Source of the DNA: Brachycybe producta
Taxonomy: Eukaryota > Arthropoda > Diplopoda > Playtdesmida > Andrognathidae
Direction of reading: 5' to 3'
Length of the DNA stretch: 64,000 nucleotides
Assembly: GCA_036925085.1 (NCBI GenBank)
Contig: JAUPFP010000010.1
Coordinates: 4,349,996-4,413,995, forward strand
In this document: positions 1 to 62,727 of the stretch, piece after piece
Layout: each line of letters starts with the position of its first letter
Numbering within the stretch: position 1 is the first letter of the stretch
Translations under genes and position numbers: made by a program
Notes under the pieces: generated by a model
Database searches by the model: none
The model's input: only the letters and a program-made list of their open reading frames with translations
Told to the model about the DNA's origin: nothing

Positions 1-230
1 ATGGAGAAGATGTATATCAGCATCAACCGGAAGAGAGAGAGATGGCCGCCACTCTCCTGCATTGATTTCACCCCCATGCAGAAGAGTGACTTCAATCTAT
101 CTCCATCCAGCTCTCTCTACAGCTCGGATCTTCTCTGTGCAGGTGTCATACTGCTCAGAGAAGAAACGAAAAGTAGAAAATGTCATCTAAAGGTTGGTAA
201 TAAAATATTGGTTGATGTCAAAAGCTCACA
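1..230 (+). repeat. Partial 5' LTR of element 1 (last 230 bp)
   Basis: Same sequence as 9585-9814, 53108-53337 and 62498-62727 with few or no changes. Ends in CA at 230, directly before a two-base spacer and the primer-binding site. The reading frame that runs through it is part of the LTR and not a gene. Confidence 0.93.
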
Positions 231-232
231 TT

Positions 233-250
233 TGGTGGAGGTGCGGGGTA
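233..250 (+). promoter_or_regulatory. tRNA-Ala-type primer-binding site, element 1
   Basis: TGGTGGAGGTGCGGGGTA begins two bases after the LTR. Known animal tRNA-Ala genes end in an acceptor strand CACCTCC plus discriminator A and CCA, whose complement is TGGTGGAGGTG, so (-)-strand priming by tRNA-Ala is likely. The same site is at 53340-53357 and, with one change, at 29716-29733. Confidence 0.8.
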
Positions 251-349
251 TAGCTCCATCTGCCTTCTCCGACCTGTAAACAGAAGCCGTCCTTTGTCCT
301 AAGTCTCGTGATTGTGCCTCACGAGGCTTCGTCCGTCCTTTCTATGTTG

Positions 350-705
350 GAGCCACGTATGGAGACCCTCGATAGCGTCAAAGTCAACCGCGTGGCGCCT
401 GTCTGTAAAACCGCGTATGGAGACCCTCGATCACGTCAAAGTCAACCGCGCGGCGTCCTTTGTGTTGGAACCACGTGTGGAGACCCTCGATAGCGTCAAA
501 GTCGACCACGTGGCGCCTTTGTAAAACCGCGTATGGAGGCCCTCGATCACGTCAAAGCCAACCGCGCGGCGTCCTTTGTGTTGGAACCACGTATGGAGGC
601 CCTCGATAGCGTCAAAGCCAACCGCGTGGCGCCTTTTTATGTTGGGATCATGTATGGAGGCCCTCGATCACGTCAAAGCCAACCGCATGGTACCGTTTTT
701 GTGGA
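350..705 (+). repeat. Tandem array of about 60-bp units in the element 1 leader
   Basis: Six imperfect units, each with a core reading TATGGAGRCCCTCGATMRCGTCAAAG followed by a CCGCG or CCACG box. The units alternate between a GATAGCGTC and a GATCACGTC version, suggesting a doubled higher-order unit. The array lies just after the primer site and is kept almost unchanged at 53457-53812 in element 2. The position fits a leader packaging or regulatory role, which is inference. Confidence 0.85.
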
Positions 706-2430
706 ATCGCGAAAGAGACTTGTGGCTACACACACCACGTGTCGACCGCACGATTCTGTGTCCTGTCCTTAGAGACACGTGGGAACGAACTTTTGTCTGC
801 TGACCGCTTAGCACTCGGAAAGTGGACAACCGTTTGGACACACGTGTTTCCGTCCGTGTTTTTGTATTTCATGTTTCCATTACAATCACCCACTGTCACC
901 TTCACTCTTCTTTAATTTTCAAAGTGAAACCCACACCACGTGGGCAACACTTTAAACAAATTCTTCTTACTCTCCGAGAGGAGTTTGCAGTCTCATTATG
1001 AGATGAGCAAACAAATCTCATCTACTAATCTATTCATCTATTAATAGGCTTTTAAAGGACGTGTGTGTCTTTTAAAATGTCCTATTATCTTCACTCTTCA
1101 TCTTTAATTTTCAAGCAAGATTCTCCCTAGCTCTATTTCATTGTTAGGGGGCTTACAAGCTTAAAACACACTTTTTCTAGCCACGTGGGACTTTCTTGTC
1201 CCCCCTTTTCTTTGTTCTTTGTTTTTACACTTGTGTTTCCCTTGGGACCCTCTATGTCCCAAGTCATGTTCTTCAATTTCTTCATCATCATCACCTCAAT
1301 GCATCATCACATGAACTTTCTCCATTGGACAACACTGAAGCCCGGCCGCCATCTTGGATCGACCGGACACTCTTCAAAAAGCGCCAACGGAGCGGTTTTT
1401 CGCTCCATGTGACTCATTGTTGTACCTTCTCTCATCTTTTTGTGTTCTCTTCTCTTCTCTTCTCTTCCAGAGGGTTGCACTCACGCGCCCCCTGGCGGAG
1501 TTCCTCTTGTTAGAGAAAACTTCTCTTTTTCTTTGAATTTTCTCTCTTTTTGTGTCTTTCTCCTGGCCACCATAAAAACGTGCCCCGGAGGAACTTTTCA
1601 ATCATCAATTTTTGGACATTGCAATAAACTGAACCGGAAGTGGCCACCTCAGCGCCACCTACGGACCTCTTCCTTCTACTCAACATAGTCCCTCACTGGG
1701 CACTGACTCTGTCTTTTCATCCAGAGCCATCCAGCAGTGAGGACCCAAAATTTCTCCAGTCTGAACATTTCTTCTGGTTCACCAAGTATTTATCTTGTTG
1801 AACACACTTCAATTTCTACACTGTTTTACTGTTTTAATAAAACTAAATTGAAACTTTTGATGTGCGGGCACCGCACCTAAGTTTTAAACTTTCAAAGTAA
1901 AACAGCTTTCTTTTCTTGCTTCTTTGGAGAGTTCAGCCATCTTGAACTTCTCCTTTGTTTGTGCATTTAAAAAAAGTTCAGCCATCTTGAACTTTTTGTT
2001 CTTTGTGTGTTCTTCACACACACACTCTTCATTCTTGTTTCTAAGTAAAACTAAAAGTGCGGGCACCGCGCTCTAGCTTTACTCTTCGTATTGCTTTCCT
2101 CTTCTTCAGGCAACTGCAATACACTTCCATTTCTAATTCACTTTCCGCAGTGCAATCTTGATTGGGTGGTGTACCACGCTCGAGGTTGTATTGTACATCT
2201 GCTGTTTCTTTATTGAGGTTTTTGGAATTCTCGTAACCTCCACGTGGTCGCCAAATACCACGTGTCGAGAGAGATCCTTCCAAAATCTGACGCTCAATAA
2301 AGAATTCACGACGCTACACCAGTTGGGAACCAAAACTCATCACACGCCCAACTGAGAACACGATCAACACGATACAACCATCACCACACTAACGGAGTGA
2401 ACGGCCACTTCGTTATACACGTCACAAGCT
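706..2430 (+). other. Long untranslated leader of element 1
   Basis: No convincing coding region. Pyrimidine-rich stretches, several CCACGTGG-type boxes and repeated GCGGGCACCGCG motifs (near 1865 and 2059). It matches element 2 (about 53800-55260) closely up to about 2150, then similarity drops. A CAGTTGGG...CCCAACTG stem at about 2320-2355 is kept in elements 2 and 3. Confidence 0.7.
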
Positions 2431-2431
2431 T

Positions 2432-2486
2432 AGGTAATCTATCGTTACTCAGTGTATAAGAGTACGATAGTGTCGGTTGCCGACAA
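2432..2486 (+). promoter_or_regulatory. Conserved splice-donor-like site and two tandem hairpins upstream of gag
   Basis: AG|GTAATC at 2432-2438 resembles a 5' splice site and recurs as AG|GTAAAC in element 2 (55517-) and element 3 (31602-). It is followed by stem CTATCGT/ACGATAG (2439-2445 with 2464-2470) and immediately by TGTCGG/CCGACA (2471-2476 with 2480-2485). The second stem is also perfect in element 3 although its loop changed. A role in splicing, dimerisation or packaging is inferred. Confidence 0.55.
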
Positions 2487-2670: not shown

Positions 2671-5052
2671 ATGGCTACCTCACACGACAATACGGGGTCC
2701 CTGTCTGATCACCAGGGTTCGCACGAAGATCTGTTGGAAGTACCCGTGACTACTGATGTGACACCACCGCCGCGGCCGACTGGGGCCGAGTTTGACCACC
2801 TGTCACAACAAGTGGCTGCACTCTCGACTCATATGTCTCAGTTCATAGACGACCGATTCACGCCGAATCGACCGACTACACCACGGCGGACAACACGCAC
2901 ACACCGACTTCGCGACGATGACTCGGACGCCTCTTCAGCCCCCTATGTTGGCTACAGAGAGCGTCACGATCGTTACGAAAGACATTACACACCGCACACA
3001 CGTCATCTACCGCGTAACCCTGACTGGCAACAACAAGGGCAGTCAGATGATCCGCGTCACAGAGATGAGCGTGCGGAAATACCGATCACGACACGTGCTG
3101 ATTCTCCTCACTCGCTTGTCCGGGTTGCACGTAGCGGTCGCCGCTCGACACCCCCGGAACAACAGCCTAGCCAAGGAGCGACACAAGGCACTTCAGTTTA
3201 CGCGCCACGTTTTCCACCTCAAGGGGTAGGTCTGATGCCGGCTGGAATGTCAAACGTCCAGGATGGCATCTATCGACCAACCCCCAGAGAACCCTCCGTG
3301 GAAGAATTCAATAAGAAATACAGCGGTCGCCACCCAGCCGACTCAATCCAAAAATTCAACGGATTGACAGGTTTCCGTCCCTTCCTGGAAGAATTCGAGG
3401 AAGTAGCACACCTGTACGGTTGGAAAGACCACCACAAGGAGGAATACATCACGGGGTGTTTCACTGGGGCCGCCCGCACGTGGCTGAGTAAACTGAGGTA
3501 TGAGCTTCAGGACATTCCTTGGCCAGCACTGAGAGTACAGATGGTAGATACGTTCGGGAAGCCGAACGAACTGGCCATCTTGGAGAAAAAGTATACAGAG
3601 ATGCTCCAGAAGGAAGGTGAGAGTACACAAGCTTTCATCTGGGAGTTTATGATACTCGGCGACCGAGTTTACCCGCAACTTGACGATCAGCTGCGTATAA
3701 GCCAGTTGCGCCGCGCTCTACATCCCACCATACAGAACGCCGCGCATCACGCATCTACGACGTCATTCAAGGACTTCGCAAACGCCGTCCTCAATATGGA
3801 GGTGGTCTTGCTGTCCTTGGATAAATGGCCGACGGAACCGAAACCCGCAGCTGATTCACAGTCGGGTAAAGGAGCATCGAAGACCGACCAGGAGCCGGCG
3901 GCAGCCGCCAGCCCTAAAGACAAAACACACCGGTCTAGGCATGATAAAAAGCCTAGTCAGACTGCTGCCACCAATTCAAACCGACACTCTGCAGCGGACA
4001 CCCAACCAGAGACCACTCGCACGTTCGACAAGAGTAAGTCGACGTGTTATAATTGTGGCAAATTGGGGCATTTCGTCCGTGAGTGTCGGCAACCAAAGAA
4101 GAAGGTTGCAATCAAGCAGTTTGGTGAGCCGGTTACCGACTATGACATCAAAGGAGAGGTGCCTGAAACGGATATCATCACCGAAGACGGCGTTGAGTTT
4201 GCTCTAATAAGAGTGGCGGGACAAATCCGCCGGATTCCTCTTCCAGCAGCAGACTCAGCCGCCGGAGCGCCTACTCCTGATAAACCCGACAACGACAGTT
4301 CTGACGACTCTGAGGATATACCAGTCAAGGTGCTCGACCGGGCTCCTGCACATAAATGGACCCCGGACGATCTAATCGTTTGGCAGGACACGCTCGACGT
4401 CCTTAAACAATCCGTCAAGGAGATTGGGTGCCGTGAAAATAAAACAATAGCCATCATGGCTCCCGGAACCCAATCGCCGACGAAGGGCCACTCCTGCTGC
4501 CGAAGACTAATGACAACGGTGTATGAGCAGCTGGTAAGCAGCTGTTCACCTCAAGAAGTCGGAGACTATGATGCCAGCGACAAGAACCCGCGCATCGCCG
4601 TCACGATCAACGGAAAGAGTATACGGATGCTCGCGGACACCGGAGCTACGGGCAGCGTTATCACCATTGAACTCGCGCAGGAACACAAGTTCGAAATCGA
4701 GCCTGTGTTAATCCCACCCAACATTCAGGGTGTGGGAGGCCAAAGGATCACCGTGGTGGGGCGACTCGCCGCGACGGTCCAGCTAGGCCCCCACGCTGTG
4801 CGAGGGCACTTACTAGTGATTACCGGCCGGCACGAAGCCATCTTAGGCCGAGATCTAGGCCGGGCTCTGCACTTAGCTGTGTCCATGACAACAAACAAAG
4901 TATACGTGGAGGACGATCTCTTCGAATCCACACTCCGACAAAAATGCATTGAAGCACACATCGGATGGGCTCTGGGAGAAACTTCCGTAGAGGCCCCTGG
5001 CAAATCTGCCAGCACCTCTAAGGAAAACCTCGAAACTCCACCCCGTAAGTGA
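2671..5052 (+). CDS. gag-pro: Gag-protease polyprotein (793 aa), intact
   Basis: Structural and processing protein of the retrotransposon particle. The N-terminal ~200 residues are polar, Arg/Pro-rich and low complexity. A retrotransposon Gag (capsid-like) domain covers about 217-375, including a GFRPFLEEF segment, W-rich helices and the FANAVLNMEV end. A CCHC zinc knuckle (CYNCGKLGHFVREC) is at 459-472. A retropepsin-type protease follows, with catalytic DTGA at 656-659 and the flap/ILGRDLG block near 725. It ends shortly after the protease at PPRK with no RT. ATG 2671 is chosen because its context aligns with the ATG at 55661 in element 2. The protease part and about 70 residues before it are homologous to element 2 but clearly diverged. 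No frameshift signal leading into pol exists because no pol follows. Confidence 0.9.
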   Translation: MATSHDNTGSLSDHQGSHEDLLEVPVTTDVTPPPRPTGAEFDHLSQQVAALSTHMSQFIDDRFTPNRPTTPRRTTRTHRLRDDDSDASSAPYVGYRERHDRYERHYTPHTRHLPRNPDWQQQGQSDDPRHRDERAEIPITTRADSPHSLVRVARSGRRSTPPEQQPSQGATQGTSVYAPRFPPQGVGLMPAGMSNVQDGIYRPTPREPSVEEFNKKYSGRHPADSIQKFNGLTGFRPFLEEFEEVAHLYGWKDHHKEEYITGCFTGAARTWLSKLRYELQDIPWPALRVQMVDTFGKPNELAILEKKYTEMLQKEGESTQAFIWEFMILGDRVYPQLDDQLRISQLRRALHPTIQNAAHHASTTSFKDFANAVLNMEVVLLSLDKWPTEPKPAADSQSGKGASKTDQEPAAAASPKDKTHRSRHDKKPSQTAATNSNRHSAADTQPETTRTFDKSKSTCYNCGKLGHFVRECRQPKKKVAIKQFGEPVTDYDIKGEVPETDIITEDGVEFALIRVAGQIRRIPLPAADSAAGAPTPDKPDNDSSDDSEDIPVKVLDRAPAHKWTPDDLIVWQDTLDVLKQSVKEIGCRENKTIAIMAPGTQSPTKGHSCCRRLMTTVYEQLVSSCSPQEVGDYDASDKNPRIAVTINGKSIRMLADTGATGSVITIELAQEHKFEIEPVLIPPNIQGVGGQRITVVGRLAATVQLGPHAVRGHLLVITGRHEAILGRDLGRALHLAVSMTTNKVYVEDDLFESTLRQKCIEAHIGWALGETSVEAPGKSASTSKENLETPPRK

Positions 5053-6546
5053 CGACGAAAGCAACGGCCACCCACGCTGTCAAGAAACCAAACGCGACGA
5101 AAATAAAACAATAATTCACCAGTGTTTATTTCATGACTATGGAAATAAACACCAGCAACCATCAAATATCAACAATAGAAGAGCGGGAGGAATTTGAGAA
5201 TTGTTGTGTTAAGAAACAACTGAGGACAGTTGTCAAGAGGTGGGGGAGGGGATAAAAGGAACCCCCCAACGAATAAACAACCCCACAGCATCAACAACCC
5301 CTCTAAACACTCTCAAATAACTCCCAAAACTCTACAAAATTCACACAACTTTAATTTTTGAAACACTTCTAAACTTTTCAACATGGCCGCCAATATTTAC
5401 ATATTGGCAACCATTTCAAACATGCAATAAACTACACCGGAACCACGTGGCCTTCACAAACAACTGTCAACCACGTGGTACACCTGGGAAAAACGCCGAA
5501 GGCTAGTCAAGGACGTTCAGAAGAAAAATCAAGAGCCATAAAAGGGTCAGCAAAAGAAAAACACCGTGCTCCCCTTTATTATGGACGAACGTCATTGACC
5601 ATGCTGTTGACAGTAGAAGGATAGAAACTTCAAAGAGACAATTGCTCTGGGGGCCAGACCAATGCACTGGGACTTCAAAGAAAAAAACAAACAACAAAAA
5701 CTGCTGGCCATAAACAAATAAAAAAAAGGAAGAAAATCAGTTTTGAAGATTTTGTGAGAGCGGACACCTTCAATTAAAAAATAAAATTGAAGAACCTGTC
5801 ACCCTCTCAATTAAGATCGAATTGTGGGACACCAACTCCTGCCCCACTCCCCCCTAAAAATAATAACAAACAGCAAGGTACATTAGTAACCTTGCTGACC
5901 TATTCTTTCCAAAAAAAAAAAGGCATTAAGGAAAAGAAGGGGAGAAAGTTAATGGGCAACTTCACACCTCGGTGTGAAATAAAATAACGGCCCTTCTCCC
6001 TCGAGATTCCTTAGTCCTTTTGTTTATCTAAAAATAATAAACAGGACCGACTCTGATAAGAATTAGATCAACACCTCTCACATCTAATATCGGTGGGACA
6101 ACCCCCACCCCCAATAAATAAAGTCGTGAAGAAACCAATTAGAGTAAGGTGTCTTATTCTAAAAGGGGCCGGCCCTTCAACTTTTAAAATTAAATAAGAA
6201 AGTGACCAAACTTGGTCAATTACCACTCGATTTGCTCTCTTCAAAGAAGCACTCGTTTTTGTTCATCTCTTTATGCTCGATCTTCTTCAATCATCAAATC
6301 TTCAATCTACTTCTGTGCCAAGTTCCAAATTTTAATTTCGAACTTCTTCAGTTTTGTTGTCAATCCAAAGCTTGAGTACCACCTTCAAGCCTTTGAACTC
6401 ACGTGCAGTGCATCAGGCCTTCAGAACTCTTTGGACCTCTTGAAATAATAACAGAGTGATCGGGGACCGATTTCTGTTATTATTTGGAAGTAACCACCAG
6501 CAGCGGGACTTTTGAAAAAGTAAGAACTTTCTAACTCTTAAGAAAT
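5053..6546 (+). other. Spacer between gag-pro and ORF3 of element 1
   Basis: No supported gene. A/T- and purine-rich. Holds a short stem ACAACTG-AGGA-CAGTTGT (5216-5233) that is also at 34429-34446 and, inside the pol coding end of element 2, at 60262-60279. It also holds a GGGATAAAAGG TATA-like box (about 5249-5260, kept in element 3) and the hairpin at 6443-6485. Element 3 has the same spacer in the same order. Confidence 0.75.
6443..6485 (+). promoter_or_regulatory. Hairpin about 60 nt upstream of ORF3, with covariation to element 3
   Basis: Thirteen-base perfect stem AAATAATAACAGA with TCTGTTATTATTT, plus an inner ATCGG/CCGAT stem. In element 3 (35561-35597) the outer stem reads TAATAGCAGA/TCTGCTATTA, an A-T to G-C double change that keeps pairing. 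The AGCAGCGGGAC motif downstream is also kept. This suggests selection on RNA structure before ORF3 translation or splicing. Confidence 0.6.
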
Positions 6547-8724
6547 ATGCCAGGTAGAGGCTCATGGAGAGGAGGCAGAATGATGTCTGCCTCTTCTAGT
6601 GAAGATGAGACGGAGAGTGGAACGGCGGGGACCGCTGAACCCCTCTCTCAATCTACCTGCCAGCTACAAAGGGCGGGCGCCGCCAGTGCGCCAATAACAA
6701 GAAGAGAGTCGCCAAACACAATAGATAGGCGCCGCACCTCCTCCGAACCGGAGAATTTTCACCGGCGTGGGGAGAAGCGCCTAAAAGCAAGCTTCAAGCG
6801 ACCTGCCAATGTCGGGCGCGAAGGGAAGCCTGCTGCTCCAAGCAGCATCGTCCCCTTCGACGTCACGACATCAAAACACTACTGGGAGGAGCGGGAAGAC
6901 CGCATCGATATTAATACAATGGCATGGGGGGTTAACCAGGCGTTCCGCGATAGCATCGCGCCTGGTCAACCCATTCCGGGTGGAGCTGAAGCAAGAGGGA
7001 AGCGTGGGGGAGGTGGATCTGTGCCCTCCCCCCTCGAAGACCTCCACTTGGAGATGCAGAGGGAGGCTGCCCTTCGCCAGGCAGCCAGAGATAAAAAGGA
7101 AGGGGAGGACAATCTGGCGTACCTCCGTGCGGTTTGCGCCCGCCTTGTCGAGCTGGGCTTACCGTGTACGGCGCAACTCCCGAAGGAGGAGCTCCTGCGA
7201 ATCGAGGCCCGACTCCAAGAAGCCGCCCCAGTTACGTCATCGGCCACGTCATCGCCTCCATCCTCAAACTCGCCAGCAACCCTGACAACTGGCCTCTCCA
7301 CATCTCCTTCTCCACCCATAACGCCACCAGAGCCTTTCCAACACTGCTCACCGGTGCCGTCAATCACTCCGCCGCCTCCTCCTCATACACCATTATCGTC
7401 ACCACCAACCTCCCGATGTGCCACGCCTCCACGCAGCGAGGCCGCCACACCAACTCCGACTCCAAAGCTACCTTCCATAGTGGTGGTTCCCCAACCTGTT
7501 CGTGTTCAGGTTCCCACTGGGGCTCGCCCCAAGGAGCCTCAACAGTCCTACAGGGGCCACCACTCTTCTCGAGACTCTCTTCAACGGCCACAACCACGTC
7601 GCTCTTCGCCACGTGGTTCCCATCTTTCGCCCCGACGCCGACCCGACGGAAGAAGTCAGCAGGAACAACGTGGTTCCTCTGGACGCGGCCCTCCGCCGCG
7701 TAATAACTTTGACCCAAGGGTCAGGCAAGACCTACAGGATCACCGAGTCCAACTGGACCGCGACCATCGCTATGAAACTCGGGGCCCTCCTACTTGGGTC
7801 CCGCGTCGCTCTCCTCCTCCGCCACCTCCGGGCCGCCCTTCTGGACAACCTACGCCCACACCTTTGATGCCGCCACCTTCCGCAGAGCGTGCCGCATTCT
7901 TGAAAAAACAGAAGGCCATCACAAACCTTCTGCAAGACGTCATGCGACAGGGAGGTGACCCCATGGAAGCACTGGGCCATGCACCAGGAAGTGCCAAGCC
8001 ACTGGAGGCGCTGAGCAGGAAGTCGGCATCGAAGCGACTACGTCAGCGGGCCCGCGATATGGCCCGGTCCGCCTTGCGCCATGCCAGGCCTATCACGGGC
8101 GCATCAGTTTCTTTGGAACCTGCGGCTCCAACACCAGCCCGACCAGCCGCACCGCCCACTGTACCCCATGCCGGGGCTACTCTGGGGCGGTTACCGCTGG
8201 ATCATCCGTTCCGTGCAGCCACCTCCGGCGAGAGGTTGCTCAACAATCGGTGGGTCACTTGGCAGCGCGAAGTGCGCTCTGCCAACACCCTTTACGTAGG
8301 ACACTTCTCTTTGGAGGAAGGGTTTCCCCGTCTGGACCTCCCTCCCCGGGAGCGATATGTCGTGGGACTCTCCCGCCTAACAAGTGTCCTCATCACCATC
8401 GTCTTCCCAAGAAGACGGATTGTTGAAACCACCAGTTTCGCCGGAGATGCCATCGATGAAGCCACGGAAGCCCTTTTGGGAGCTTTCGTCAACTCCGTCT
8501 TTAGACTGCCAGCTGGACAGACGTTCCGTACCAGTCGCCACTACATTCCGGAACCGGATCCTCGCTACCGAATCGCCGTCTTATGGGACGCCGCTTGGGC
8601 TACACTGTACAACAAGCGGTCCTCCCGTAAGATTATCGGGGACCGGGACATCTTCAATATCTTCCACCGGGATCTACCTGTCGACCAGGGACAATGGCTG
8701 TCTGCCGCATCCAGCTACCGATGA
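6547..8724 (+). CDS. ORF3 (725 aa) of element 1: disordered N-terminus + conserved C-terminal domain of unknown function
   Basis: Function not recognised. Residues 1-130 are Ser/Arg/Gly-rich. About 165-235 is charged and probably helical (EMQREAALRQAARDKKEGED region). About 240-470 is very rich in Pro, Ser, Thr and Arg. About 475-530 is a basic helical segment with many Arg and Lys. Residues 562-725 form a compact domain shared with element 2 ORF3: RLLNN-W--WQR-VR-ANT, GH--L-EGFPR, RYVVG-S, and YR-A-LWDA. There is no signal peptide, membrane span or furin-like site, so it does not look like an envelope although it lies in the env position. The basic, disordered N-terminus would suit nucleic-acid binding (inference). 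The frame is fully open. Element 3 keeps the same start, broken after about 22 codons by another repeat. Confidence 0.85.
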   Translation: MPGRGSWRGGRMMSASSSEDETESGTAGTAEPLSQSTCQLQRAGAASAPITRRESPNTIDRRRTSSEPENFHRRGEKRLKASFKRPANVGREGKPAAPSSIVPFDVTTSKHYWEEREDRIDINTMAWGVNQAFRDSIAPGQPIPGGAEARGKRGGGGSVPSPLEDLHLEMQREAALRQAARDKKEGEDNLAYLRAVCARLVELGLPCTAQLPKEELLRIEARLQEAAPVTSSATSSPPSSNSPATLTTGLSTSPSPPITPPEPFQHCSPVPSITPPPPPHTPLSSPPTSRCATPPRSEAATPTPTPKLPSIVVVPQPVRVQVPTGARPKEPQQSYRGHHSSRDSLQRPQPRRSSPRGSHLSPRRRPDGRSQQEQRGSSGRGPPPRNNFDPRVRQDLQDHRVQLDRDHRYETRGPPTWVPRRSPPPPPPGRPSGQPTPTPLMPPPSAERAAFLKKQKAITNLLQDVMRQGGDPMEALGHAPGSAKPLEALSRKSASKRLRQRARDMARSALRHARPITGASVSLEPAAPTPARPAAPPTVPHAGATLGRLPLDHPFRAATSGERLLNNRWVTWQREVRSANTLYVGHFSLEEGFPRLDLPPRERYVVGLSRLTSVLITIVFPRRRIVETTSFAGDAIDEATEALLGAFVNSVFRLPAGQTFRTSRHYIPEPDPRYRIAVLWDAAWATLYNKRSSRKIIGDRDIFNIFHRDLPVDQGQWLSAASSYR

Positions 8725-53337: not shown

Positions 53338-53339
53338 TT

Positions 53340-53357
53340 TGGTGGAGGTGCGGGGTA
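53340..53357 (+). promoter_or_regulatory. tRNA-Ala-type primer-binding site, element 2
   Basis: TGGTGGAGGTGCGGGGTA, same as at 233-250. Confidence 0.8.
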
Positions 53358-53456
53358 TAGCTCCATCTGCCTTCTCCGACCTGTAAACAGAAGCCGTCCT
53401 TTGTCCTAAGTCTCGTGATTGTGCCTCACGAGGCTTCGTCCGTCCTTTCTATGTTG

Positions 53457-53812
53457 GAGCCACGTATGGAGACCCTCGATAGCGTCAAAGTCAACCGCGT
53501 GGCGCCTGTCTGTAAAACCGCGTATGGAGACCCTCGATCACGTCAAAGTCAACCGCGCGGCGTCCTTTGTGTTGGAACCACGTGTGGAGACCCTCGATAG
53601 CGTCAAAGTCGACCACGTGGCGCCTTTGTAAAACCGCGTATGGAGGCCCTCGATCACGTCAAAGCCAACCGCGCGGCGTCCTTTGTGTTGGAACCACGTA
53701 TGGAGGCCCTCGATAGCGTCAAAGCCAACCGCGTGGCGCCTTTTTATGTTGGGACCATGTATGGAGGCCCTCGATCACGTCAAAGCCAACCGCATGGTAC
53801 CGTTTTTGTGGA
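53457..53812 (+). repeat. Tandem ~60-bp leader array, element 2
   Basis: Same six units as 350-705 with one or two base changes. Confidence 0.85.
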
Positions 53813-55516
53813 ATCGCGAAAGAGACTTGTGGCTACACACACCACGTGTCGACCGCGCGATTCTGTGTCCTGTCCTTAGAGACACATGTTAAAGGAACTG
53901 CTGCATCGACATCCATCAAGCACGTGGGCAACACCTTGGTAGTAGTTCTTTGACACATGTGTTTCCGTCCGTGTTTTTGTATTTTATGTTTCCATTATCG
54001 TCACCCACTTTCACCTTTGTTCTTCTTTAATTTTCAAAGTGAAACCCACACTCCGTGGGCAACACTTTAAACAAATTCTTCTTACTCTCCGAGAGGAGTT
54101 TGCAGTCTCATTATGAGATGAGCAAACAAATCTCATCTACTAATCTATTCACCTATTAATAGGCTTTTAAAGGACGTGTGTGTCTTTTAAAATGTCCTAT
54201 CATCTTCACTCTTCATCTTTAATTTTCAAGCAAGATTCTCCCTAACTCTATTTCATTGTTAGGGGGCTTACAAGCTTAAAACACACTTTTTCTAGCCACG
54301 TGGGACTTTCTTGTCCCCGCTTTTCTTTGTTCTTTGTTTTTACACTTGTGTTTCCCTTGGGACCCTCTATGTCCCAAGTCATGTTCTTCAGTTTCTTCAT
54401 CATCATCACCTCAATGCATCATCACATGAACTTTCTCCATTGGACAGCACTGAAGCCTGGCCGCCATCTTGGATCGACCGGACACTCTTCAAAAAGTGCC
54501 AACGGAGCGGTTTTTCGCTCCATGTGACTCATTGTTGTACCTTCTCTCATCTTTTTGTGTTCTCTTCTCTTCTCTTCTCTTCCAGAGGGTTGCACTCACG
54601 CGCCCCCTGGCGGAGTTCCTCTTGTTAGAGAAAACTTCTCTTTTTCTTTGAATTTTCTCTTTTTGTGTCTTTCTCCTGGCCACCATAAAAACGTGCCCCG
54701 GAGGAACTTTTCAATCATCAATTTTTGGACATTGCAATAAACTGACCGGAAGTGGCCACCACAGCGCCACCTACGGACTTCTTCATTCTACTCAACATAG
54801 TCCCTCACTGGGCACTGACTCTGTCTTTTTCATCCAGAGCCATCCAGCAGTGAGGACTCAAAATTTCTACAGTCTGAACATTTCTTCTGGTTCACCAAGC
54901 ATTTAGCTTGTTGAACACACTTCAATTTCTACACTGTTTTACTTTTTTAATAAAACTAAATTAAAACTTTTGATGTGCGGGCACCGCACCTAAGTTTTAA
55001 ACTTTCCAAGTAAAACAGCTTTCTTCTCTTGCTTTCAGGAGAGTTCAGCCATCTTGAACTTCTCCTTTGTTTGTGCATTTAAAAAGTTCAGCCATCTTGA
55101 ACTTTTTGTTCTTTGTGTGTTCTTTACACACACACTCTTCATTCTTGTTTCCAAGTAAAACTAAAAGTGCGGGCACCGCGCTCTAGCTTTACTCTTCGTA
55201 TTGCTTGCCTCTTCTTCAGGCAACTGCAATACACTTTCATTTCTAATTCACTTTCCGCAGTGCAATTTCGATTGGGTGGTGTACCACGCTCGCAATTGCA
55301 TTGTACATCTGTTGTTTCTTCATCGAGACTTTAGGGGATTCGTATAACCTCCACGTGGTCACCAAATACCACGTGTAGAGAGAGATCTTACCAAAATTGA
55401 TACTCAATAAAGAATTTACAAACACACTGTACCAGTTGGGATCGTCACACCCAACTGAAGAACAACGCCAACACCAACACAGCCACTTAAACAACGGTAC
55501 CATCTTTATTAAACGT
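53813..55516 (+). other. Long untranslated leader of element 2
   Basis: Close match to 706-2430 of element 1 apart from a replaced patch at about 53885-53945. No gene. Similarity falls after about 55260. Confidence 0.7.
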
Positions 55517-55570
55517 AGGTAAACTATCGTCACTCAGTGTATAAGGGTACGATAGTGTCGGTTGCCGACG
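55517..55570 (+). promoter_or_regulatory. Donor-like site and tandem hairpins, element 2
   Basis: AG|GTAAAC at 55517-55524, stem CTATCGT/ACGATAG (55524-55530 with 55549-55555) and GTCGG/CCGAC (55557-55569), as in element 1. Confidence 0.55.
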
Positions 55571-55660
55571 GAAAGACCGCGATCTACAGCGGGATCAACG
55601 GCCAAACCTACAAAACACCGACTTACATTGACCACTACGTGTTGCACAAGCCTTAATACA

Positions 55661-58600
55661 ATGGATGCTCACCCACGACTAACTGGGACCGCCCGGAGGG
55701 CTCTTCTGCACTCCAGGGGAAGCATATATCCATCAGCATTGTGGAGGGCCTATGCAACATCACAGACATACGATCCACAATACGCCGCATCATCACGTGT
55801 GGCTGTCCCACTCGGACCCACCATGGATCCAGTTATTCAACCTGGGACCTGGTGGGTGCCACGAAGTGGCGGCACCCAAAGTAATGATGTGCATCAACAG
55901 TCTACACGGCGCACGGCTCGGTCCACAAACAATAGTACATTTCGACGCCTAATGTCGTCCACATGTTACTCCAGATATCAACAGGAGCGATCTCCGCTAC
56001 TACCAGATCCACTTCCCACACAGTCGTGTGATGGTTGCAAACTCAACACCATCATGCATCAACTTAATGAATTAAAAATACAGATCACTCACATGATGAT
56101 TATTCATAATGACACCCAACTGTCGCCTGCGCCACCACTACCGACTACATGTACTACAACACCACAATATCGCCAATATCGTAGCGAATCAGACAATTCT
56201 CCGCCGTACGCTGTCGGGAACCGAGAGCCGTACGAGCCCTGCTACGATTCATACTACAGACGACATGTACCAGGTCCATATACGATACCTGAAGAGCGCG
56301 CGTACTATGTACCGCGCTATACAAACTATGAGCGTACAGAACATCAGTACGCGCACCCGACCTACGATTTCACAAGGGAGGCCTCCGATACGGACCACCG
56401 TAGTGTGGTCATGGTACTGGACATGCCTCCTGAGACAACCAATTATGACAGAGCACCGGCCGGCATGCCAATAATGATGGTCGACTACATCCCGGAGTTA
56501 ACTTGGGGAATGGATGACCTAACTACCTGGCATGGTACCCTTGAGGTCATCAACCTCGCCACCGCCGCCTTGGGTTGCACCGCCAATGAGGTGGTCGCCA
56601 TCTTGGCTCCAGGTGGTGGGACTTCACTCCAAGGGCGCCCTTGTTGCCGCCGGATGCTGAAAGACCTATATAGACAACTGAAGAATACTTGCATGCCTCA
56701 AGAGATCGGAGATCATAGTGTCAGTGATGACAGTCCGAAGATCACTGTCACTATCAATGGCAAAGAGGTCCGCATGCTCGTAGACACCGGAGCTCATGGT
56801 AGTGTAATATCCAAGGCACTTGCCAAGCAGCTCCAACTCAACATCAAGCCTATGGCTCATCCGCCAAGGATTGAGGGAGTTGGAGGAAACACCATCGCCG
56901 TGGCAGGGCAAGTCTCCGCTACAGTGGAAATTGCCAAACAATCCGCCACGGGCCGCCTGCTGGTTATCACTGGCCCACCCGACGCCATCTTAGGCCGAGA
57001 CCTGGGTAGGGCACTGAAGCTCCTTGTGTCTATGCAGACCAATAAAGTTTACTTAGAGGACGACCTCTTTGAATCAGCACTCCGAAGGCAGAGTATTCAG
57101 GCGTACGTCAAGAGTGCTCTGGAAGAAATCACGCCAGCCACTCTTGGGGAGTCGGACACCGCTCCCATTGAAGTCAAGCTTATGCAGCAACCAAACGAAT
57201 ACCTAGTAGTCAAAGGGCTAACGCAGCTCACTGGCCATGGGACAACACTAGTGGAGGTAGAGGCCTCTGGGATCCTCACAGATCAGGATCTTTTCGTGGT
57301 CTCTCCTGACGAGAAGCTACGTGCCTCGAGGGGGGTCTGGGTGGCCCCCGGCATTATGCAAGGCCGTAATAGCAACAGCTTCCTAGTCGAGGTCCTGAAC
57401 ACCACTATGGGGCCATTGACCCTGGCCTCCGGCGAAGTGATAGCCCATGTACAAAAAGACTACTGTTGCGAAACGGTTGAAGTAAAGACCACTTCAAACG
57501 CTGACCCGATCATGACAAAAGAGTCAGGCGCTAAATTCGATGAAGCAATGCAACTCGGGCCTCGATTACGTAATGGCCAGAGGCGCATTCTAATGGATCT
57601 TTTGAGATCCTATCGAGATGTCTTCGCGCTAGAAACGTCGGAACTTGGATGTACCAACCTCACGGAACACCGAATCGATACTGGCGATCATGTACCCGTG
57701 CGGGAACCCCTCCGAAGGAGTGGCCCCGAGCAGCGGGAGATCATCCGGAAGACAGTTGAGGAGATGCTCAAATCCGGAGTAGCCAGCGAATCCAAGTCTC
57801 CTTATGCTTCAGCAGTAGTCCTGGTGAAGAAGAAGGATGGACAATGGCGTTTCTGCGTTGACTATAGACGCCTGAACGATATCACCAAACCAGACAATTA
57901 CCCACTACCCCGAATCGATGATGCTTTAGACTCGCTTCGTGGGTCGAGAATCTTCGCGACCCTCGACATGATCTCCGGCTATTGGCAATTTGAGGTCGCC
58001 AAAGAGGATAGGGAGAAGACCGCGTTCATCACACCAGGTGGGCTGTTCGAATTCAATCGGATGCCCTTTGGTCTGCGTAACGCTCCTGCTACCATGCAGC
58101 GTGCCCTGGATATCCTTTTGGCTGGCCACAAATGGGAGACTTGTCTAGTCTACCTAGACGACATCATCGTATTCGGCGCGACTTTTGAACAATTTATGGA
58201 AAGGCTGGACTGCGTCCTAGGACTCCTAAGAGAGGCGGGGTTGAAGCTTCACCCCGAAAAGAGCTTCTTCGGCTACGACGAAGTCCTCTACCTGGGACAC
58301 ATCATCTCCAAAGACGGAGTGCGTCCAGACCCGAGGAAAGTGGTTGCCATCTCCGACTTAGCGGCGCCTACTAATGTCAAGGAGGTGAAGCGATTTCTGG
58401 GCATGGCCGGTTTCTACCGGCGATTTATTGTTAACTTTGCCCACATCGCTAAACCACTCACGGATATGACCAAAAAGGGGCTGCCCTTTTTATGGACGAT
58501 CGACAGAGAGGCAGCATTTACTCTGTTAAAGACTAAACTTGTCACCGCGCCAATATTGGCCATTTACGACCCGGATGCCGAAATCAAAATGCACACCGAC

Positions 58601-60349
58601 GCCTCTGCTTACGGCATCGGAGCTATCCTCTACCAACAGTCACCATCTAAGGAACTGCAGATCCTGGGTGGTGTCTCTCGAGTGCTCCGAGACGCCGAAT
58701 TAAACTATTCAACAACAGATAAAGAGTGCCTCGCAGTGGTGTATGGCATCGTCAAGTTTAGACCTTATCTCTTTAACAAAGCCTTTGTCATCGTCACCGA
58801 CCATCATGCACTGTGCTACTTAAAAACCGCACAGCGACTCCAGGGACGCCTGGGCCGCTGGCAGCTACTGCTCCAGGAATACGACTACACCGTAGTCTAC
58901 AAAGCCGGCATCACTCACGTGGATGCAGATTGCATTTCACGGAGTCCGGTGGACGTTCCTGAGGACTGGAAGCTGCAGGCTACCCCAGATGACCTCGACG
59001 ACAGCGTGGTTTACGCAGTCACTTTGCGTTGGGATTGGTCGGTTGAACAGACAAGAGACCCGAACGTGACACAGATTAAGACCGAACTTCGCAACAATCC
59101 AAGTACCGAGCTTCACCATACCTATGTCATCATAGACGAGGTTTTGTGTGCCCTTGTCTACCAGGGCAGCGTCACACCCAAGCTCGTGACGGTGGTACCC
59201 AAACATCTGGTACCCGAAGTTCTGAGACTTCTACACGATAGTCCTGAAGCCGGACATTTCGGCCAGGATAAGACATTAGAAAAGGTGTGCCAACGGTTCT
59301 TTTGGCCAACCTGGAAGCAGGATACCATCGAGTATGTGCGCACGTGCGAGATATGCCAAAAGTGCAAGACACCACAGTCCAAGCTGCCCGGGTTCCTCCA
59401 TGAAATGGAAGTTGGAGACCCAGGTGAATGCTGGGGAATCGATTACATCGGTCCCCTGCCAAAGTCACTGGGTGGTGTCAAGCATATCATCCTGGCAGTG
59501 GATTACGCCACCAGATTCTGTTTCGCACGAGCTGTGCACAGCCAGTCGGCCAAAACAACTAAGAATTTCCTCCAAGATACGATCGTGTATCTTATCGGGA
59601 TGCCCAGGAGGATAATCACCGACCGGGGAACACCTTTTACAGCTAAAGACACACAAGCGCTGTGTGACGAGCTAGGAATAAAGCACGCCACCACGACAGC
59701 GTACTTTCCGCAAGGAGACGGTCTTGCGGAAAGGACCAACAAAACTATAATGCAGACCGTCAAGAGACTCCTGACGCCTGAAAAAGGACAGCGGGATTGG
59801 TATTTCCATCTCCAAGCCGCCACCTTCGCTTACAACACCGCGACCCATACGTCGACGAAGTTCTCGCCATACCGCTTAATGTTTGGAAGAGAGGCCCGAC
59901 TACGAATCGACAACCGGGCACCTCTCCTACCGAAGGTTATGGATTCAAACCCTGCAGCACCTTCTGTGGTTGCCACGGAAGAGGTCGAAATCGCAAGGGC
60001 CAACCTGCACGAGGCCCATTTGCGACAGAAGAAGTACTATGACGCAAGACGAAAAACTCCACACACGTATAAAATCGGAGACCCAGTACTCGTTCGAGAT
60101 CAACGCATCGTGCCTGATGAGACCAAGAAACTACGTTACTCGTACAGGGATGGTTACACGGTAACCAAAATCATCAGCGACACGGTGCTCGAGCTGGAGC
60201 ACGAAGATACGTTTGGAAGATTGATTCGAGACACGGTGAACATTGTACATATCAAGCCAAAACAACTGAGGACAGTTGTTCAAGGGTTGGAGGGGGAAGA
60301 CAAATCCAGCTCCCCACAACAAGAGGAACCTACCTCCTCACCACAATAA
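55661..60349 (+). CDS. pol: Pol polyprotein: PR-RT-RNase H-integrase (1562 aa), intact
   Basis: Copies RNA to DNA and integrates it. The frame is open from 55562, but ATG 55661 aligns with the gag ATG of element 1 and is preferred. Residues 1 to about 300 are Tyr/Arg/Pro-rich, vaguely like the start of element 1 Gag, but without capsid domain or CCHC. Protease catalytic DTGAH begins at 375, ILGRDLG near 448. RT is at about 690-870 with LDMISGYWQFEV, MPFGLRNAPATMQR and catalytic YLDD at 831-834. RNase H follows with HTDAS (Asp 980) and DKECLAVVYG. Integrase has HHCC zinc residues H1192, H1199, C1229, C1232 and catalytic D1261, D1321, E1357 (35 residues between the last two). The C-terminus is basic. 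This domain order defines Ty3/gypsy. It stops 325 bp before the first recognisable start region of ORF3. Confidence 0.93.
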   Translation: MDAHPRLTGTARRALLHSRGSIYPSALWRAYATSQTYDPQYAASSRVAVPLGPTMDPVIQPGTWWVPRSGGTQSNDVHQQSTRRTARSTNNSTFRRLMSSTCYSRYQQERSPLLPDPLPTQSCDGCKLNTIMHQLNELKIQITHMMIIHNDTQLSPAPPLPTTCTTTPQYRQYRSESDNSPPYAVGNREPYEPCYDSYYRRHVPGPYTIPEERAYYVPRYTNYERTEHQYAHPTYDFTREASDTDHRSVVMVLDMPPETTNYDRAPAGMPIMMVDYIPELTWGMDDLTTWHGTLEVINLATAALGCTANEVVAILAPGGGTSLQGRPCCRRMLKDLYRQLKNTCMPQEIGDHSVSDDSPKITVTINGKEVRMLVDTGAHGSVISKALAKQLQLNIKPMAHPPRIEGVGGNTIAVAGQVSATVEIAKQSATGRLLVITGPPDAILGRDLGRALKLLVSMQTNKVYLEDDLFESALRRQSIQAYVKSALEEITPATLGESDTAPIEVKLMQQPNEYLVVKGLTQLTGHGTTLVEVEASGILTDQDLFVVSPDEKLRASRGVWVAPGIMQGRNSNSFLVEVLNTTMGPLTLASGEVIAHVQKDYCCETVEVKTTSNADPIMTKESGAKFDEAMQLGPRLRNGQRRILMDLLRSYRDVFALETSELGCTNLTEHRIDTGDHVPVREPLRRSGPEQREIIRKTVEEMLKSGVASESKSPYASAVVLVKKKDGQWRFCVDYRRLNDITKPDNYPLPRIDDALDSLRGSRIFATLDMISGYWQFEVAKEDREKTAFITPGGLFEFNRMPFGLRNAPATMQRALDILLAGHKWETCLVYLDDIIVFGATFEQFMERLDCVLGLLREAGLKLHPEKSFFGYDEVLYLGHIISKDGVRPDPRKVVAISDLAAPTNVKEVKRFLGMAGFYRRFIVNFAHIAKPLTDMTKKGLPFLWTIDREAAFTLLKTKLVTAPILAIYDPDAEIKMHTDASAYGIGAILYQQSPSKELQILGGVSRVLRDAELNYSTTDKECLAVVYGIVKFRPYLFNKAFVIVTDHHALCYLKTAQRLQGRLGRWQLLLQEYDYTVVYKAGITHVDADCISRSPVDVPEDWKLQATPDDLDDSVVYAVTLRWDWSVEQTRDPNVTQIKTELRNNPSTELHHTYVIIDEVLCALVYQGSVTPKLVTVVPKHLVPEVLRLLHDSPEAGHFGQDKTLEKVCQRFFWPTWKQDTIEYVRTCEICQKCKTPQSKLPGFLHEMEVGDPGECWGIDYIGPLPKSLGGVKHIILAVDYATRFCFARAVHSQSAKTTKNFLQDTIVYLIGMPRRIITDRGTPFTAKDTQALCDELGIKHATTTAYFPQGDGLAERTNKTIMQTVKRLLTPEKGQRDWYFHLQAATFAYNTATHTSTKFSPYRLMFGREARLRIDNRAPLLPKVMDSNPAAPSVVATEEVEIARANLHEAHLRQKKYYDARRKTPHTYKIGDPVLVRDQRIVPDETKKLRYSYRDGYTVTKIISDTVLELEHEDTFGRLIRDTVNIVHIKPKQLRTVVQGLEGEDKSSSPQQEEPTSSPQ

Positions 60350-60719
60350 ACCAATAACCCTATCAACAACCCATACAACCTAAATTTTTTCTTTTGGTTG
60401 TTTATATCATCACATTGGTCACTTGCTGACACACACCAATATAAACAAACAACAACGTGTGTGACCACAAACATTCACACACCCCTGCTCACATTTCACC
60501 ACTCGAATCTGATTCCAATGGGGAAACTTTCGTACACTGCGTTTGGGGACCAGGTCGTCTGACAACAATAACAAACAATAGTGGAAGAACGGCGTTTAAT
60601 ACTCAGAAACCGACACCCCGCGAGCCTCCAATAACAAACAAATTGGGTGGCTTATTGGAGTTCCAGCCAGCTTCGTGGAATTATATGATTTCCATGGGAC
60701 CCTGGAATTTCACACCTCG
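60350..60719 (+). other. Spacer between pol and ORF3
   Basis: Overlapping short open frames in two registers, none with family support. The element 1 and 3 pre-ORF3 hairpin is not found here. Confidence 0.5.
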
Positions 60720-61697
60720 ATGGGGAAGTCGGGAAACACACAAGTATATAGCCAACGCCAGGCTGGTCACCAGCACTTCGGAAACAATTCTGGAAGAACA
60801 AGGATGTCACAGTGCAACGAAACAACGGGAAGCCAGGACGATGCCATCCCTGACCCATCTACTAGGATGGACTCGGATGACACGACAACGCAGCAACTCG
60901 GCATCGAGGAAGTCGGGGACGACACAGCGCGCGCCGTCGACCTAACGACGTCAACTGCCTCGTCTCGCCATATCGCCGCAGCCTCAGCAACCCCCGTACT
61001 AACTTTGCCGCAAGTGACACAACCTTTTCGCATACCAACAGTCACTACCAGGAGACTACCGGTATATCGACCGCTTCGTCAGGAAGCACGATGTGAAAGA
61101 CTGCTAAATAATTGCTGGGCACTCTGGCAACGACAGGTGCGGCCCGCGAACACCTATTACATCGGTCACTATGACCTGATGGAGGGATTTCCGCGCATCT
61201 ACATACCGGAGGAAGGGCGCTACGTTGTAGGAATGTCATACTACCTGCAACTCTCTATGGCCGTCTTAACTCCGTCCACCCGGTACATCGAAATATACCA
61301 GTTTGCCGAGCAGCCCATCACTCCAGCATTGGGCGCCCTTCAGCAGGCTTTCTTTAACAGTCTCCTGGGAGTCCCACTTAACGGAGCATACAGCATTGCC
61401 CGAATGATCGTTTGGAGGACCCGCGCCACTTACCAGGCCGCCATCCTGTGGGACGCCGTTTACGGTGTCCTCACCGGGCAACCACCGGCCCGACTGATCA
61501 CCGCCGACGCCACCGTCCACCGAAGTTTCATGGAAAGTCTCCGGGGCTTCGACAACGGATGGATCGTCGCCGCCTGGGAATCCTATCATCCCTGGCTGCG
61601 GAGCCACCTCCTCCACTCACCGTCAGACCCCCTACAAGCACTTCACGGATATGTCTCTGCATGTACATGTGCATGCAATCAACCGACGTGGGTATAG
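60720..61697 (+). CDS. ORF3 of element 2 (325 aa from ATG 60720), conserved domain of unknown function
   Basis: The frame is open from 60675 with no ATG before 60720; ATG 60804 is another possible start. Residues 1-110 are Ser/Thr/Asp-rich and disordered-looking, much shorter than in element 1 and without the long Pro-rich part. From about 126 to 300 it matches the element 1 ORF3 C-terminal domain: RLLNN-W--WQR-VR-ANT-Y-GH, EGFPR, RYVVGMS, AILWDAVYGVLTG. No membrane span or signal peptide. It lies where env would be in an errantivirus-like element but shows no envelope feature. Presence in both partner elements, with the domain kept and the N-terminus swapped, indicates a needed role for the family. 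Function unknown. Confidence 0.8.
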   Translation: MGKSGNTQVYSQRQAGHQHFGNNSGRTRMSQCNETTGSQDDAIPDPSTRMDSDDTTTQQLGIEEVGDDTARAVDLTTSTASSRHIAAASATPVLTLPQVTQPFRIPTVTTRRLPVYRPLRQEARCERLLNNCWALWQRQVRPANTYYIGHYDLMEGFPRIYIPEEGRYVVGMSYYLQLSMAVLTPSTRYIEIYQFAEQPITPALGALQQAFFNSLLGVPLNGAYSIARMIVWRTRATYQAAILWDAVYGVLTGQPPARLITADATVHRSFMESLRGFDNGWIVAAWESYHPWLRSHLLHSPSDPLQALHGYVSACTCACNQPTWV

Positions 61698-62039
61698 ATT
61701 AGAAAACCGTGTGGTCACCGCCCATTGGGGTGGTGAGCTCGAAAAATATAAAAAAAAAAAAAAGAAAAGAATTCTGTTATAACTGCTTTATGTATAAATA
61801 AGTATTTCTTGTAAATTTCCATAGGAACTCGCCACTCAGCGAGTATTAATTGTGTTTGCCTTTTTATTTTCAGAATTTGCATTTTCAAAGGGCGCTGACA
61901 CTTCGGTGCCAGTGCCTTTCCATAACCACCTCTGTACACGGTAAGTCCTCAGCCACCCATGTCTCCCCGCTGCGTAACTTGAAAACCTTCCACCCTTGGC
62001 TGGAGTACGAGGACGTACTCCAAGCAAAGTTGGAGGGTA
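61698..62039 (+). promoter_or_regulatory. Structured 3' UTR of element 2
   Basis: Stem TCACCGCCC/GGGTGGTGA with an ATTG loop (61715-61736), stem CTCGC/GCGAG (61828-61843), acceptor-like TTTATTTTCAG ending 61874, and donor-like CACG|GTAAGT at 61937-61946. From about 61888 on nearly the same as element 1. Confidence 0.6.
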
Positions 62040-62727
62040 TGTAACACCCTGTAAATCGTGATCCCGCCAAAACCATAGCCTGGGGGGTAAACAACTCTCA
62101 ACCGTCCCTCCCTCCTCTCTGACTCACCTTTCTGACTCATGCCCAAGTGGCGGATTGATACATAAAGGACCATGGTCACTTGGACCTGGTTACACCTCGC
62201 AGGTGTACACGGGTCCAAGGTATAAAAGGACCATGTTCCTCTTTGTTAAGTAGTTCTTTCCTTTGCCTGTTTTTGAGATAAATTCCAAATCATGGGCCTG
62301 AGGATTCACCGTTAGTATTTTACTATTCACCCTTGTATCTGTACTTCTTACAAGGAATGAATAAAAGTGTTGTAACAAGAAGTAGCGTTGTCTCTATGTC
62401 TTTATGTTAATAACTTCTCTTCAGAGGCCGGAGGTTTCATAGGGCAGGAGCTATACGATTCTCAGCAGCTACAACATCTTCTCTAGTCGGAATACCGATG
62501 GAGAAGATGTATATCAGCATCAACCGGAAGAGAGAGAGATGGCCGCCACTCTCCTGCATCGATTACACCCCCATGCAGAAGAGTGACTACAATCTATCTC
62601 CATCCAGCTCTCTCTACAGCTCGGATCTTCTCTGTGCAGGTGTCATACTGCTCAGAGAAGAAACGAAAAGTAGAAAATGTCATCTAAAGGTTGGTAATAA
62701 AATATTGGTTGATGTCAAAAGCTCACA
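62040..62727 (+). repeat. 3' LTR of element 2
   Basis: 688 bp, TGTAACACCC to GCTCACA; differs from the 5' LTR at about 62147 (T against C) and about 62635 (T against G). Confidence 0.95.

What the first reader, a model, noticed from the sequence alone, without database searches (positions are those of the whole stretch)
1..62727. A split-genome (two-component) LTR retrotransposon: Gag-PR on one element, PR-RT-RNase H-IN on another
Seen: element 1 has intact Gag-PR and ORF3 but no RT/RH/IN; element 2 has intact PR-RT-RH-IN and ORF3 but no capsid or CCHC. Each supplies what the other lacks, each has full cis signals, and both look young (element 2 LTRs differ at two sites; element 1's 230 bp of 5' LTR match the 3' LTR). 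Known: Ty3/gypsy elements normally carry gag and pol on one RNA. Inference: the two RNAs are co-packaged and the pair forms a mutual, bipartite element. Alternative: both are deletion derivatives of an autonomous master.
Basis: partly seen in the sequence, partly recalled or inferred. Interest (0 to 1): 0.92.

Follow-up and report, generated by a model that had tools for sequence, protein, structure and literature searches.

The report
LTR retrotransposon split in two halves
In this eukaryotic genome one retrotransposon appears to have divided its essential genes between two kinds of element, one carrying the capsid and one carrying the copying and integrating enzymes, with ends alike in both, so each kind seems to need the other to spread.

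Summary
The window has a Gag-PR-ORF3 element (E1) and a PR-RT-RH-IN-ORF3 element (E2) with the same 688-bp LTRs. The host genome (295 Mb) holds many of both. Of 138 scored gag loci, 92 keep the Gag-PR frame and 35 a PR-less one; of 97 scored RT loci, 71 keep the gag-less pol frame. No scored gag locus starts within 13.7 kb of a scored RT locus. Of 24 elements reached through their LTRs, 14 are gag type, 7 pol type, 1 a third type, 1 without gag or pol in the part read, 1 unresolved, none with both. They are not recent deletions of one master: coding cores differ (PR region 50% aa, ORF3 ends 36% aa), while LTRs and most of the leader are nearly identical and show no structure by type (permutation p 0.29 or more). 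Co-packaging with template switching would produce this. Gag-without-RT copies exist at about 72% identity, so that half of the split is old. Both frames evolve under purifying selection. Limits: only the most similar copies were scored, so a diverged gag-pol element is not excluded; no RNA or particle data.

The parts
1..230 (+). Element 1 (gag type), 3' part of its 5' LTR; the rest lies before the window (starts G000:C10:4349538)
   Evidence: identical to 9585-9814; 223 bp of the upstream part fetched as L086, 0 differences
231..250 (+). Element 1 primer-binding region just inside the 5' LTR, same as in E2 (tRNA not identified)
   Evidence: sequence; same motif downstream of other 5' LTRs
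231..2484 (+). Element 1 leader shared with E2; 95-100% alike in most 100-bp steps up to about 2100 (dip at 701-900), falling off just before the coding frame
2671..5052 (+). Element 1 ORF1: Gag (capsid, CCHC nucleocapsid) and aspartic protease, 793 aa, no RT
   Evidence: Pfam hits; 138 scored copies
4371..5065 (+). 695-bp stretch holding the protease, missing in the PR-less gag subclass
   Evidence: L038, L041, L058; 35 of 138 loci have the 629-codon frame
6547..8724 (+). Element 1 ORF3, 725 aa; its last about 220 aa are 36% identical to E2's ORF3
   Evidence: open over its whole length in L083
9117..9126 (+). Element 1 purine-rich stretch before the 3' LTR
   Evidence: sequence; same in other copies
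9127..9814 (+). Element 1 3' LTR, 688 bp
29053..35709 (+). Element 3: old broken gag-type copy, about 71% to E1 from LTR through Gag-PR to the start of ORF3; no match to E2's RT, RNase H or IN
   Evidence: LTR fragment also at 38474-38750
52650..53337 (+). Element 2 (pol type) 5' LTR
   Evidence: 2 of 688 differences to 62040-62727
53338..55561 (+). Element 2 leader, shared with E1
55562..60349 (+). Element 2 ORF: PR-RT-RNase H-IN, 1595 aa, no capsid or CCHC match
   Evidence: Pfam; 97 scored copies
60675..61697 (+). Element 2 ORF3, 340 aa; core tentatively resembles the CE-clan (Ulp1/adenain) protease fold, catalytic residues apparently missing
   Evidence: not reproduced with the ORF3 of E1
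62030..62039 (+). Element 2 purine-rich stretch before the 3' LTR
   Evidence: sequence
62040..62727 (+). Element 2 3' LTR

Best explanation
This is a Ty3/gypsy-type LTR retrotransposon whose genome is split over two element types. The gag type (G) makes the particle shell and nucleocapsid. The pol type (P) makes protease, reverse transcriptase, RNase H and integrase. Both RNAs carry the same LTRs, primer site, leader and 3' end. Shown: anatomy, copy numbers, absence of an element with gag and RT together among scored copies, purifying selection on both, and exchange of the ends between types. Inferred: both RNAs enter particles built from G's Gag; P's Pol enters the particle without a Gag fusion; template switching between co-packaged RNAs keeps the ends alike; each type spreads only where the other is active. 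The ORFs probably come from one ancestral Gag-PR-RT-IN frame by complementary losses, since both keep the post-nucleocapsid linker and protease in the same order.
For: Census: 92 of 138 gag loci with the 839-846-codon frame, 35 PR-less; 71 of 97 RT loci with a 1570-1600-codon frame; nearest scored gag-RT pair 13.7 kb apart and on opposite strands. LTR-based sample of 24 elements: 14 G, 7 P, 1 third type, 1 without gag or pol in the part read, 1 unresolved, 0 with both. E1 against E2: 93.6% over 1-2484 and 95.9% over 8891-9833, but 49.6% aa over 230 residues around PR and 36% aa in ORF3. LTRs of 8 G and 7 P copies, local duplicates and doubtful rows left out: within minus between identity -0.03, exact p 0.67, closest cross-type pair 99.85%; at E1 8600-8799, 330-530 bp inside the LTR, the same copies separate fully (59 points; within 98-99%, between 38-40%). 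Leaders of 5 G and 6 P copies: exact p 0.65, 0.29, 0.71 for three stretches; a variable patch at 801-900 varies as much within types (86.5, 86.9%) as between (87.3%). pN/pS 0.09 for ORF1 (20 distinct copies), 0.09 / 0.17 / 0.11 for PR, RT-RH, IN (7 P copies). Gag-without-RT at about 72% identity in element 3, L084 and L085.
Against: Only the best-scoring copies were compared (138 of 2693, 97 of 3360, 40 of 1914 first-look candidates), so a diverged gag-pol element could exist unscored. At C60 a gag element (L075) and an RT locus (C60:206126) lie 10.6 kb apart on one strand: two adjacent elements that share one LTR, not one element, but the closest thing seen to a linked pair. The LTR sample was drawn by likeness to E2's LTR and holds local duplicates. 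The capsid query itself selected near-identical capsids, so pN = 0 there means nothing. No old pol-only copy was found, as the search cannot reach past the young ones. Exchange of ends could in part be genomic gene conversion. No RNA or particle data.
Confidence: 0.8

Rival explanations
1. A hidden autonomous gag-pol master (diverged, or outside the assembly) supplies everything; both types are parasites that happen to keep their frames.
For: Known pairs such as Cereba/Quinta and BARE1/BARE2 have an autonomous partner. Only top-scoring copies were examined.
Against: No element with both among 138 gag and 97 RT loci or among 24 sampled through LTRs; both frames under purifying selection, which parasites need not show; the P frame has the gag-less length in 71 of 97 loci.
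Confidence: 0.13
2. Deletion derivatives: E1 and E2 are recent complementary deletions of one young element.
For: Same LTRs and leader; PR present in both.
Against: PR region 49.6% aa identical and ORF3 ends 36% against 96-100% in most 100-bp steps of the shared ends; many copies of each; gag-only copies already at about 72% identity.
Confidence: 0.02
3. Pol and gag types share ends through gene conversion among genomic copies, without co-packaging.
For: Many near-identical copies give conversion many chances; conversion also gives patchy identity. An LTR shared by a G and a P element at C60 shows that recombination between genomic LTRs happens or that paired insertions occur.
Against: Similarity covers the non-coding ends and stops near the coding frames on both sides in the copies compared; P cannot be packaged without some Gag, and G cannot be copied without some RT.
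Confidence: 0.05

Closest known systems
RLG_Cereba / RLG_Quinta of wheat centromeres (PMC11302176; abstract and 12 passages seen)
   Same: Partner elements with shared LTR ends, PBS and PPT; Quinta carries gag and an unknown domain but no RT or IN; template switching is proposed there between Quinta lineages.
   Different: Cereba is described as autonomous, with all proteins needed. Here the pol partner has no capsid or nucleocapsid match and no autonomous partner was found.
BARE1 / BARE2 of barley (PMC3735527; 12 passages seen)
   Same: BARE2 cannot make Gag and its RNA is packaged in BARE1 particles, so a gag-less element can use another's Gag.
   Different: BARE1 is complete, so BARE2 is described as a parasite; the dependence here looks mutual. 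BARE is a Copia element.
Athila of Arabidopsis (PMC2410132; abstract and 12 passages seen)
   Same: Whole families with gag (and env-like) but no pol, under purifying selection, recombining with others.
   Different: All potentially autonomous, pol-bearing Athilas there also carry gag; here no scored RT locus sits in an element with a scored gag.
HeT-A / TART / TAHRE telomeric non-LTR elements of Drosophila (PMC5537684; 4 passages seen)
   Same: An abundant element with Gag but no pol probably relies on RT from another element.
   Different: Non-LTR mechanism; TAHRE combines Gag and Pol.
Foamy viruses (recalled, no call)
   Same: Pol is made apart from Gag and packaged without a Gag-Pol fusion.
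   Different: Gag and Pol come from one genome.

Membership tests
Ty3/gypsy LTR retrotransposon (Metaviridae) | pol order PR-RT-RNase H-IN | tested here: met
   E2 ORF
Ty3/gypsy LTR retrotransposon (Metaviridae) | LTRs with TG...CA ends, primer site and purine tract | tested here: met
   primer tRNA not identified
Ty3/gypsy LTR retrotransposon (Metaviridae) | short target-site duplication | tested here: met
   4 bp in four other copies by eye (L005/L003, L009/L004, L010/L006, L021/L017); E1 only consistent, inside AT repeats; E2 not exact
Ty3/gypsy LTR retrotransposon (Metaviridae) | gag and pol on the same element | tested here: not met
   no such element among 138 gag and 97 RT loci; limited to scored copies
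Autonomous / non-autonomous LTR pair (Quinta, BARE2 kind) | one partner carries both gag and pol | tested here: not met
   and the LTR sample of 24; limited to scored copies
Autonomous / non-autonomous LTR pair (Quinta, BARE2 kind) | partners share LTR ends, primer site and purine tract | tested here: met
Multipartite genome (works like one) | segments with common non-coding ends and different coding cores | tested here: met
Multipartite genome (works like one) | segments packaged together | not testable with these tools
   only inferred from exchange of ends
CE-clan cysteine protease (ORF3 core) | fold | tested here: inconclusive
   model of E2's ORF3 (pLDDT 48) matched mainly entries named as SENP/Ulp1, adenovirus or poxvirus proteases and similar bacterial effectors; model of E1's ORF3 did not
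CE-clan cysteine protease (ORF3 core) | catalytic His, Asp/Glu and Cys | tested here: inconclusive
   no His and Cys conserved between the two at the places expected by eye in alignment A1

The most novel reading that the evidence does not exclude
A multipartite retrotransposon: an LTR element with no full-length form, whose genome is at least two obligate segments (Gag-PR and PR-RT-RH-IN) plus a low-copy third (nucleocapsid plus an integrase-like core without the catalytic residues) and satellites, all with interchangeable ends, replicating like a segmented virus inside a genome.
Probability: 0.6. Interest if true: 0.95.

Novelty: new variant of a known kind. Interest (0 to 1): 0.87.

Why it matters
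Trans-complementation between retroelements is known, but in each set I read about some element carries both genes. A reciprocal split at high copy number, without a complete partner in sight, would make cooperation between selfish elements a lasting way of life. It makes testable how Pol enters particles without a Gag fusion, how selection keeps trans-acting genes intact, and whether genome segmentation can arise inside a host genome.

Tried and rejected
Recent deletion from one master: rejected. Hidden capsid in the pol frame: no Pfam match in residues 1-393 of the E2 frame; not modelled. Literature: nine answered searches listed no reciprocal gag/pol split that I recognised from titles and abstracts; many journals are not held. 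PMC3485330 and PMC5014426 (passages) were not relevant. Protein database: pol found 4388 relatives among 7975 scored, the 120 listed being 31-50% identical, many from a pseudoscorpion; gag one weak hit; ORF3 none. ORF3 of E2 against PDB sequences: one hit at E 1.1. Mended on re-check: the leader next to L012 was labelled gag, but the element it opens holds RT (C60:206126), so it is pol; one search repeats the test with that label (p 0.65, 0.29, 0.71) and without the row (p 0.25, 0.33, 0.75). In one search one of the 8 'pol' rows (L028) is the third type and L012's LTR is shared by both types, so its identity with L015 is no clean evidence; one search drops these and local duplicates L014, L023, L024 (p 0.67). 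The pN/pS row for the PR-less class is not used, as one of its four rows (L037) is a gag copy with an early stop. An old pol-only partner was not found; a search with element 3's gag, for more of the old gag type, did not complete.

Full report
What is there. The window lies at G000:C10:4349996-4413995 in a 295.3-Mb assembly of 442 contigs. Element 1 (E1) carries Gag with capsid, CCHC knuckle and protease (2671-5052) and ORF3 (6547-8724); element 2 (E2) carries PR-RT-RNase H-IN in one frame (55562-60349) and a shorter ORF3 (60675-61697). Searched with the pol protein, the window shows E2's RT, RNase H and IN only in E2; the protease region recurs in E1 and element 3. LTRs are 688 bp; E2's pair differs at 2 sites and E1's at none of 453 compared. 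Both look like young insertions with full ends.

Ends alike, cores different. E1 and E2 are 93.6% alike over 1-2484 (2507 columns, last 230 bp of LTR included) and 95.9% over 8891-9833 (944 columns, LTR included). In 100-bp steps the 5' block is 96-100% alike up to about 2100, apart from a dip at 701-1000 (86, 73, 95%), then falls to 93, 84, 68, 80 and 56% as the coding frame nears; the 3' end rises from about 40% near the end of ORF3 to 100% about 125 bp before the LTR and stays at 91-100% through it. The protease region is 49.6% identical in protein over 230 residues and the ORF3 ends 36%. A recent deletion from one master cannot give this.

Census. A capsid-nucleocapsid query scored 138 of 2693 first-look places, listed at 99-100% identity: 92 sit in an 839-846-codon frame (Gag-PR), 35 in a 629-codon frame, 11 in other frames. 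The 629 class lacks 695 bp holding the protease in the three copies read. Of 30 gag loci with flanks, all 30 continue into the E1-type non-coding stretch after the frame, with no RT there, and 23 (E1's own among them) keep exactly 793 aa. An RT-RNase H query scored 97 of 3360 places, 98-100% identical: 71 in a 1570-1600-codon frame, 25 shorter, one of 5498 unexplained. Among scored loci the closest gag-RT pair is 13.7 kb apart on opposite strands, the closest with RT downstream on the same strand 17.2 kb. One closer pair lies outside the scored gag list: at C60 the gag element read at L075 ends in an LTR (L012) that is followed at once by a primer site and leader, with RT at C60:206126, 10.6 kb from the gag stretch. 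That is a G element and a P element joined by one shared LTR, each gene set still between its own LTRs.

Sample through LTRs. The best 40 LTR matches contain 24 3' ends whose element I classed: 14 gag (L003, L006, L011-L014, L016, L018, L023, L024, L027 and those read at L069, L071, L072), 7 pol (E2 and those read at L062-L066, L068), one third type (L067), one with ORF3 but no gag or pol in the part read (L073, L083), one unresolved with a foreign RT fragment (L070), none with both. The other 16 matches: nine 5' LTRs of elements already counted, four that look solitary (L007, L008, L022, L030), three not examined. The sample is by likeness to E2's LTR; L013, L014, L024 share flanks, as do L011 and L023, so independent insertions are fewer. 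Among the seven pol copies no frameshift shows in E2, L063 and L066 (stops in L066 not checked); L062, L064, L065 and L068 are frameshifted. The gag frame read at L061 is broken by a stop.

Exchange of ends. For 8 gag and 7 pol 3' ends (duplicates and doubtful rows left out), LTR identity within types minus between types is -0.03 points (exact p 0.67), and the closest cross-type pair is 99.85% alike; at E1 8600-8799 the same copies separate by 59 points. One search, with all 20 rows, gave p 0.65. For the leader, 5 gag and 6 pol copies give exact p 0.65 (231-700), 0.29 (701-900) and 0.71 (901-1700). From about 2100 E1 differs from the five pol copies (91, then 84%) while those stay 96% alike; no second gag copy covers that stretch in this set. 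Ends thus move between types and coding cores do not. Template switching between two RNAs in one particle is the simplest cause; conversion or crossing-over between genomic copies is the other.

Selection and age. pN/pS is 0.09 over ORF1 in 20 distinct copies (capsid part biased by the query; also 0.09 for residues 481-793, outside the query) and 0.09, 0.17, 0.11 for PR, RT-RNase H and IN in 7 pol copies; the first 300 codons of the pol frame are loose at 0.76. Element 3 and two outside copies (L084, L085), at about 71-72% DNA identity to E1, also pass from Gag-PR into the E1-type non-coding stretch without RT. Gag-without-RT is therefore old. No equally old pol-only copy was reached.

A third type. 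L067 (C5) has one open frame of 655 codons: gag N-terminus (44%), CCHC (53%), no capsid, no PR or RT, a stretch 29% identical to the integrase core of E2, then the last 50 residues of the pol frame at 96%, followed by E2-type ORF3 at 97%. Pfam sees only the knuckle. By eye the integrase catalytic acids are replaced. Three copies have the 655-codon frame (95-100% to L067), one more is split, and older pieces lie at 66-82%. Its N-terminus also matches residues 205-282 of the pol frame at 34%, which hints that all three frames go back to one Gag-Pol.

How it likely works. G makes Gag, P makes Pol, both RNAs use the same signals in leader and LTR and are packed into G's particles, and P's integrase inserts both. 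The PR-less gag subclass spreads too, so protease can come from elsewhere. Gag is needed in large amounts, and gag elements outnumber pol elements two to one in the LTR sample (14 to 7), which fits but is a small, biased count.

Compared with print. Cereba/Quinta, BARE1/BARE2, Athila and HeT-A/TART/TAHRE (passages) each show part of this; in each, some element is described with both gag and pol. I found no reciprocal split in the searches named under Tried and rejected.

Noticed in passing
L067 (G000:C5:1064900-1070500): Third element type with these LTRs: nucleocapsid plus integrase-like core lacking the catalytic residues, one open 655-codon frame, three such copies in the genome.
   Followed up: partly
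G000:C60:191838-207427 (L012, L020, L075): A gag element and an RT-bearing element in tandem, joined by one shared LTR.
   Followed up: partly
L073, L083 (G000:C12:2107740-2114250): Short element with E1-type 3' end and an open 725-aa ORF3; no gag or pol in the parts read, interior about 5.5 kb.
   Followed up: partly
G000:C11:3206426-3207727: RT copy in an open frame reported as 5498 codons; may be masked letters or something else; not read.
   Followed up: no
window 10605-11333 (-), 20385-21085, 41374-41971, 47523-48227: Old diverged copies of this LTR family, roughly 70-80% alike, with no matches to the four element proteins beside them.
   Followed up: partly
window 15263-17849 and 43468-44910 (-): Pieces that look like non-LTR elements: endonuclease plus RT, and an RT alone.
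   Followed up: no
window 18758-20092: Inverted repeat with 391-nt arms, 96% complementary, 553 nt apart; a related stretch at 42808-43147.
   Followed up: no
window 63418-64000: Minisatellite of 17- and 18-bp units.
   Followed up: no
window 49510-51722: Three successive frames of 199-321 aa without a Pfam match above cut-off.
   Followed up: no
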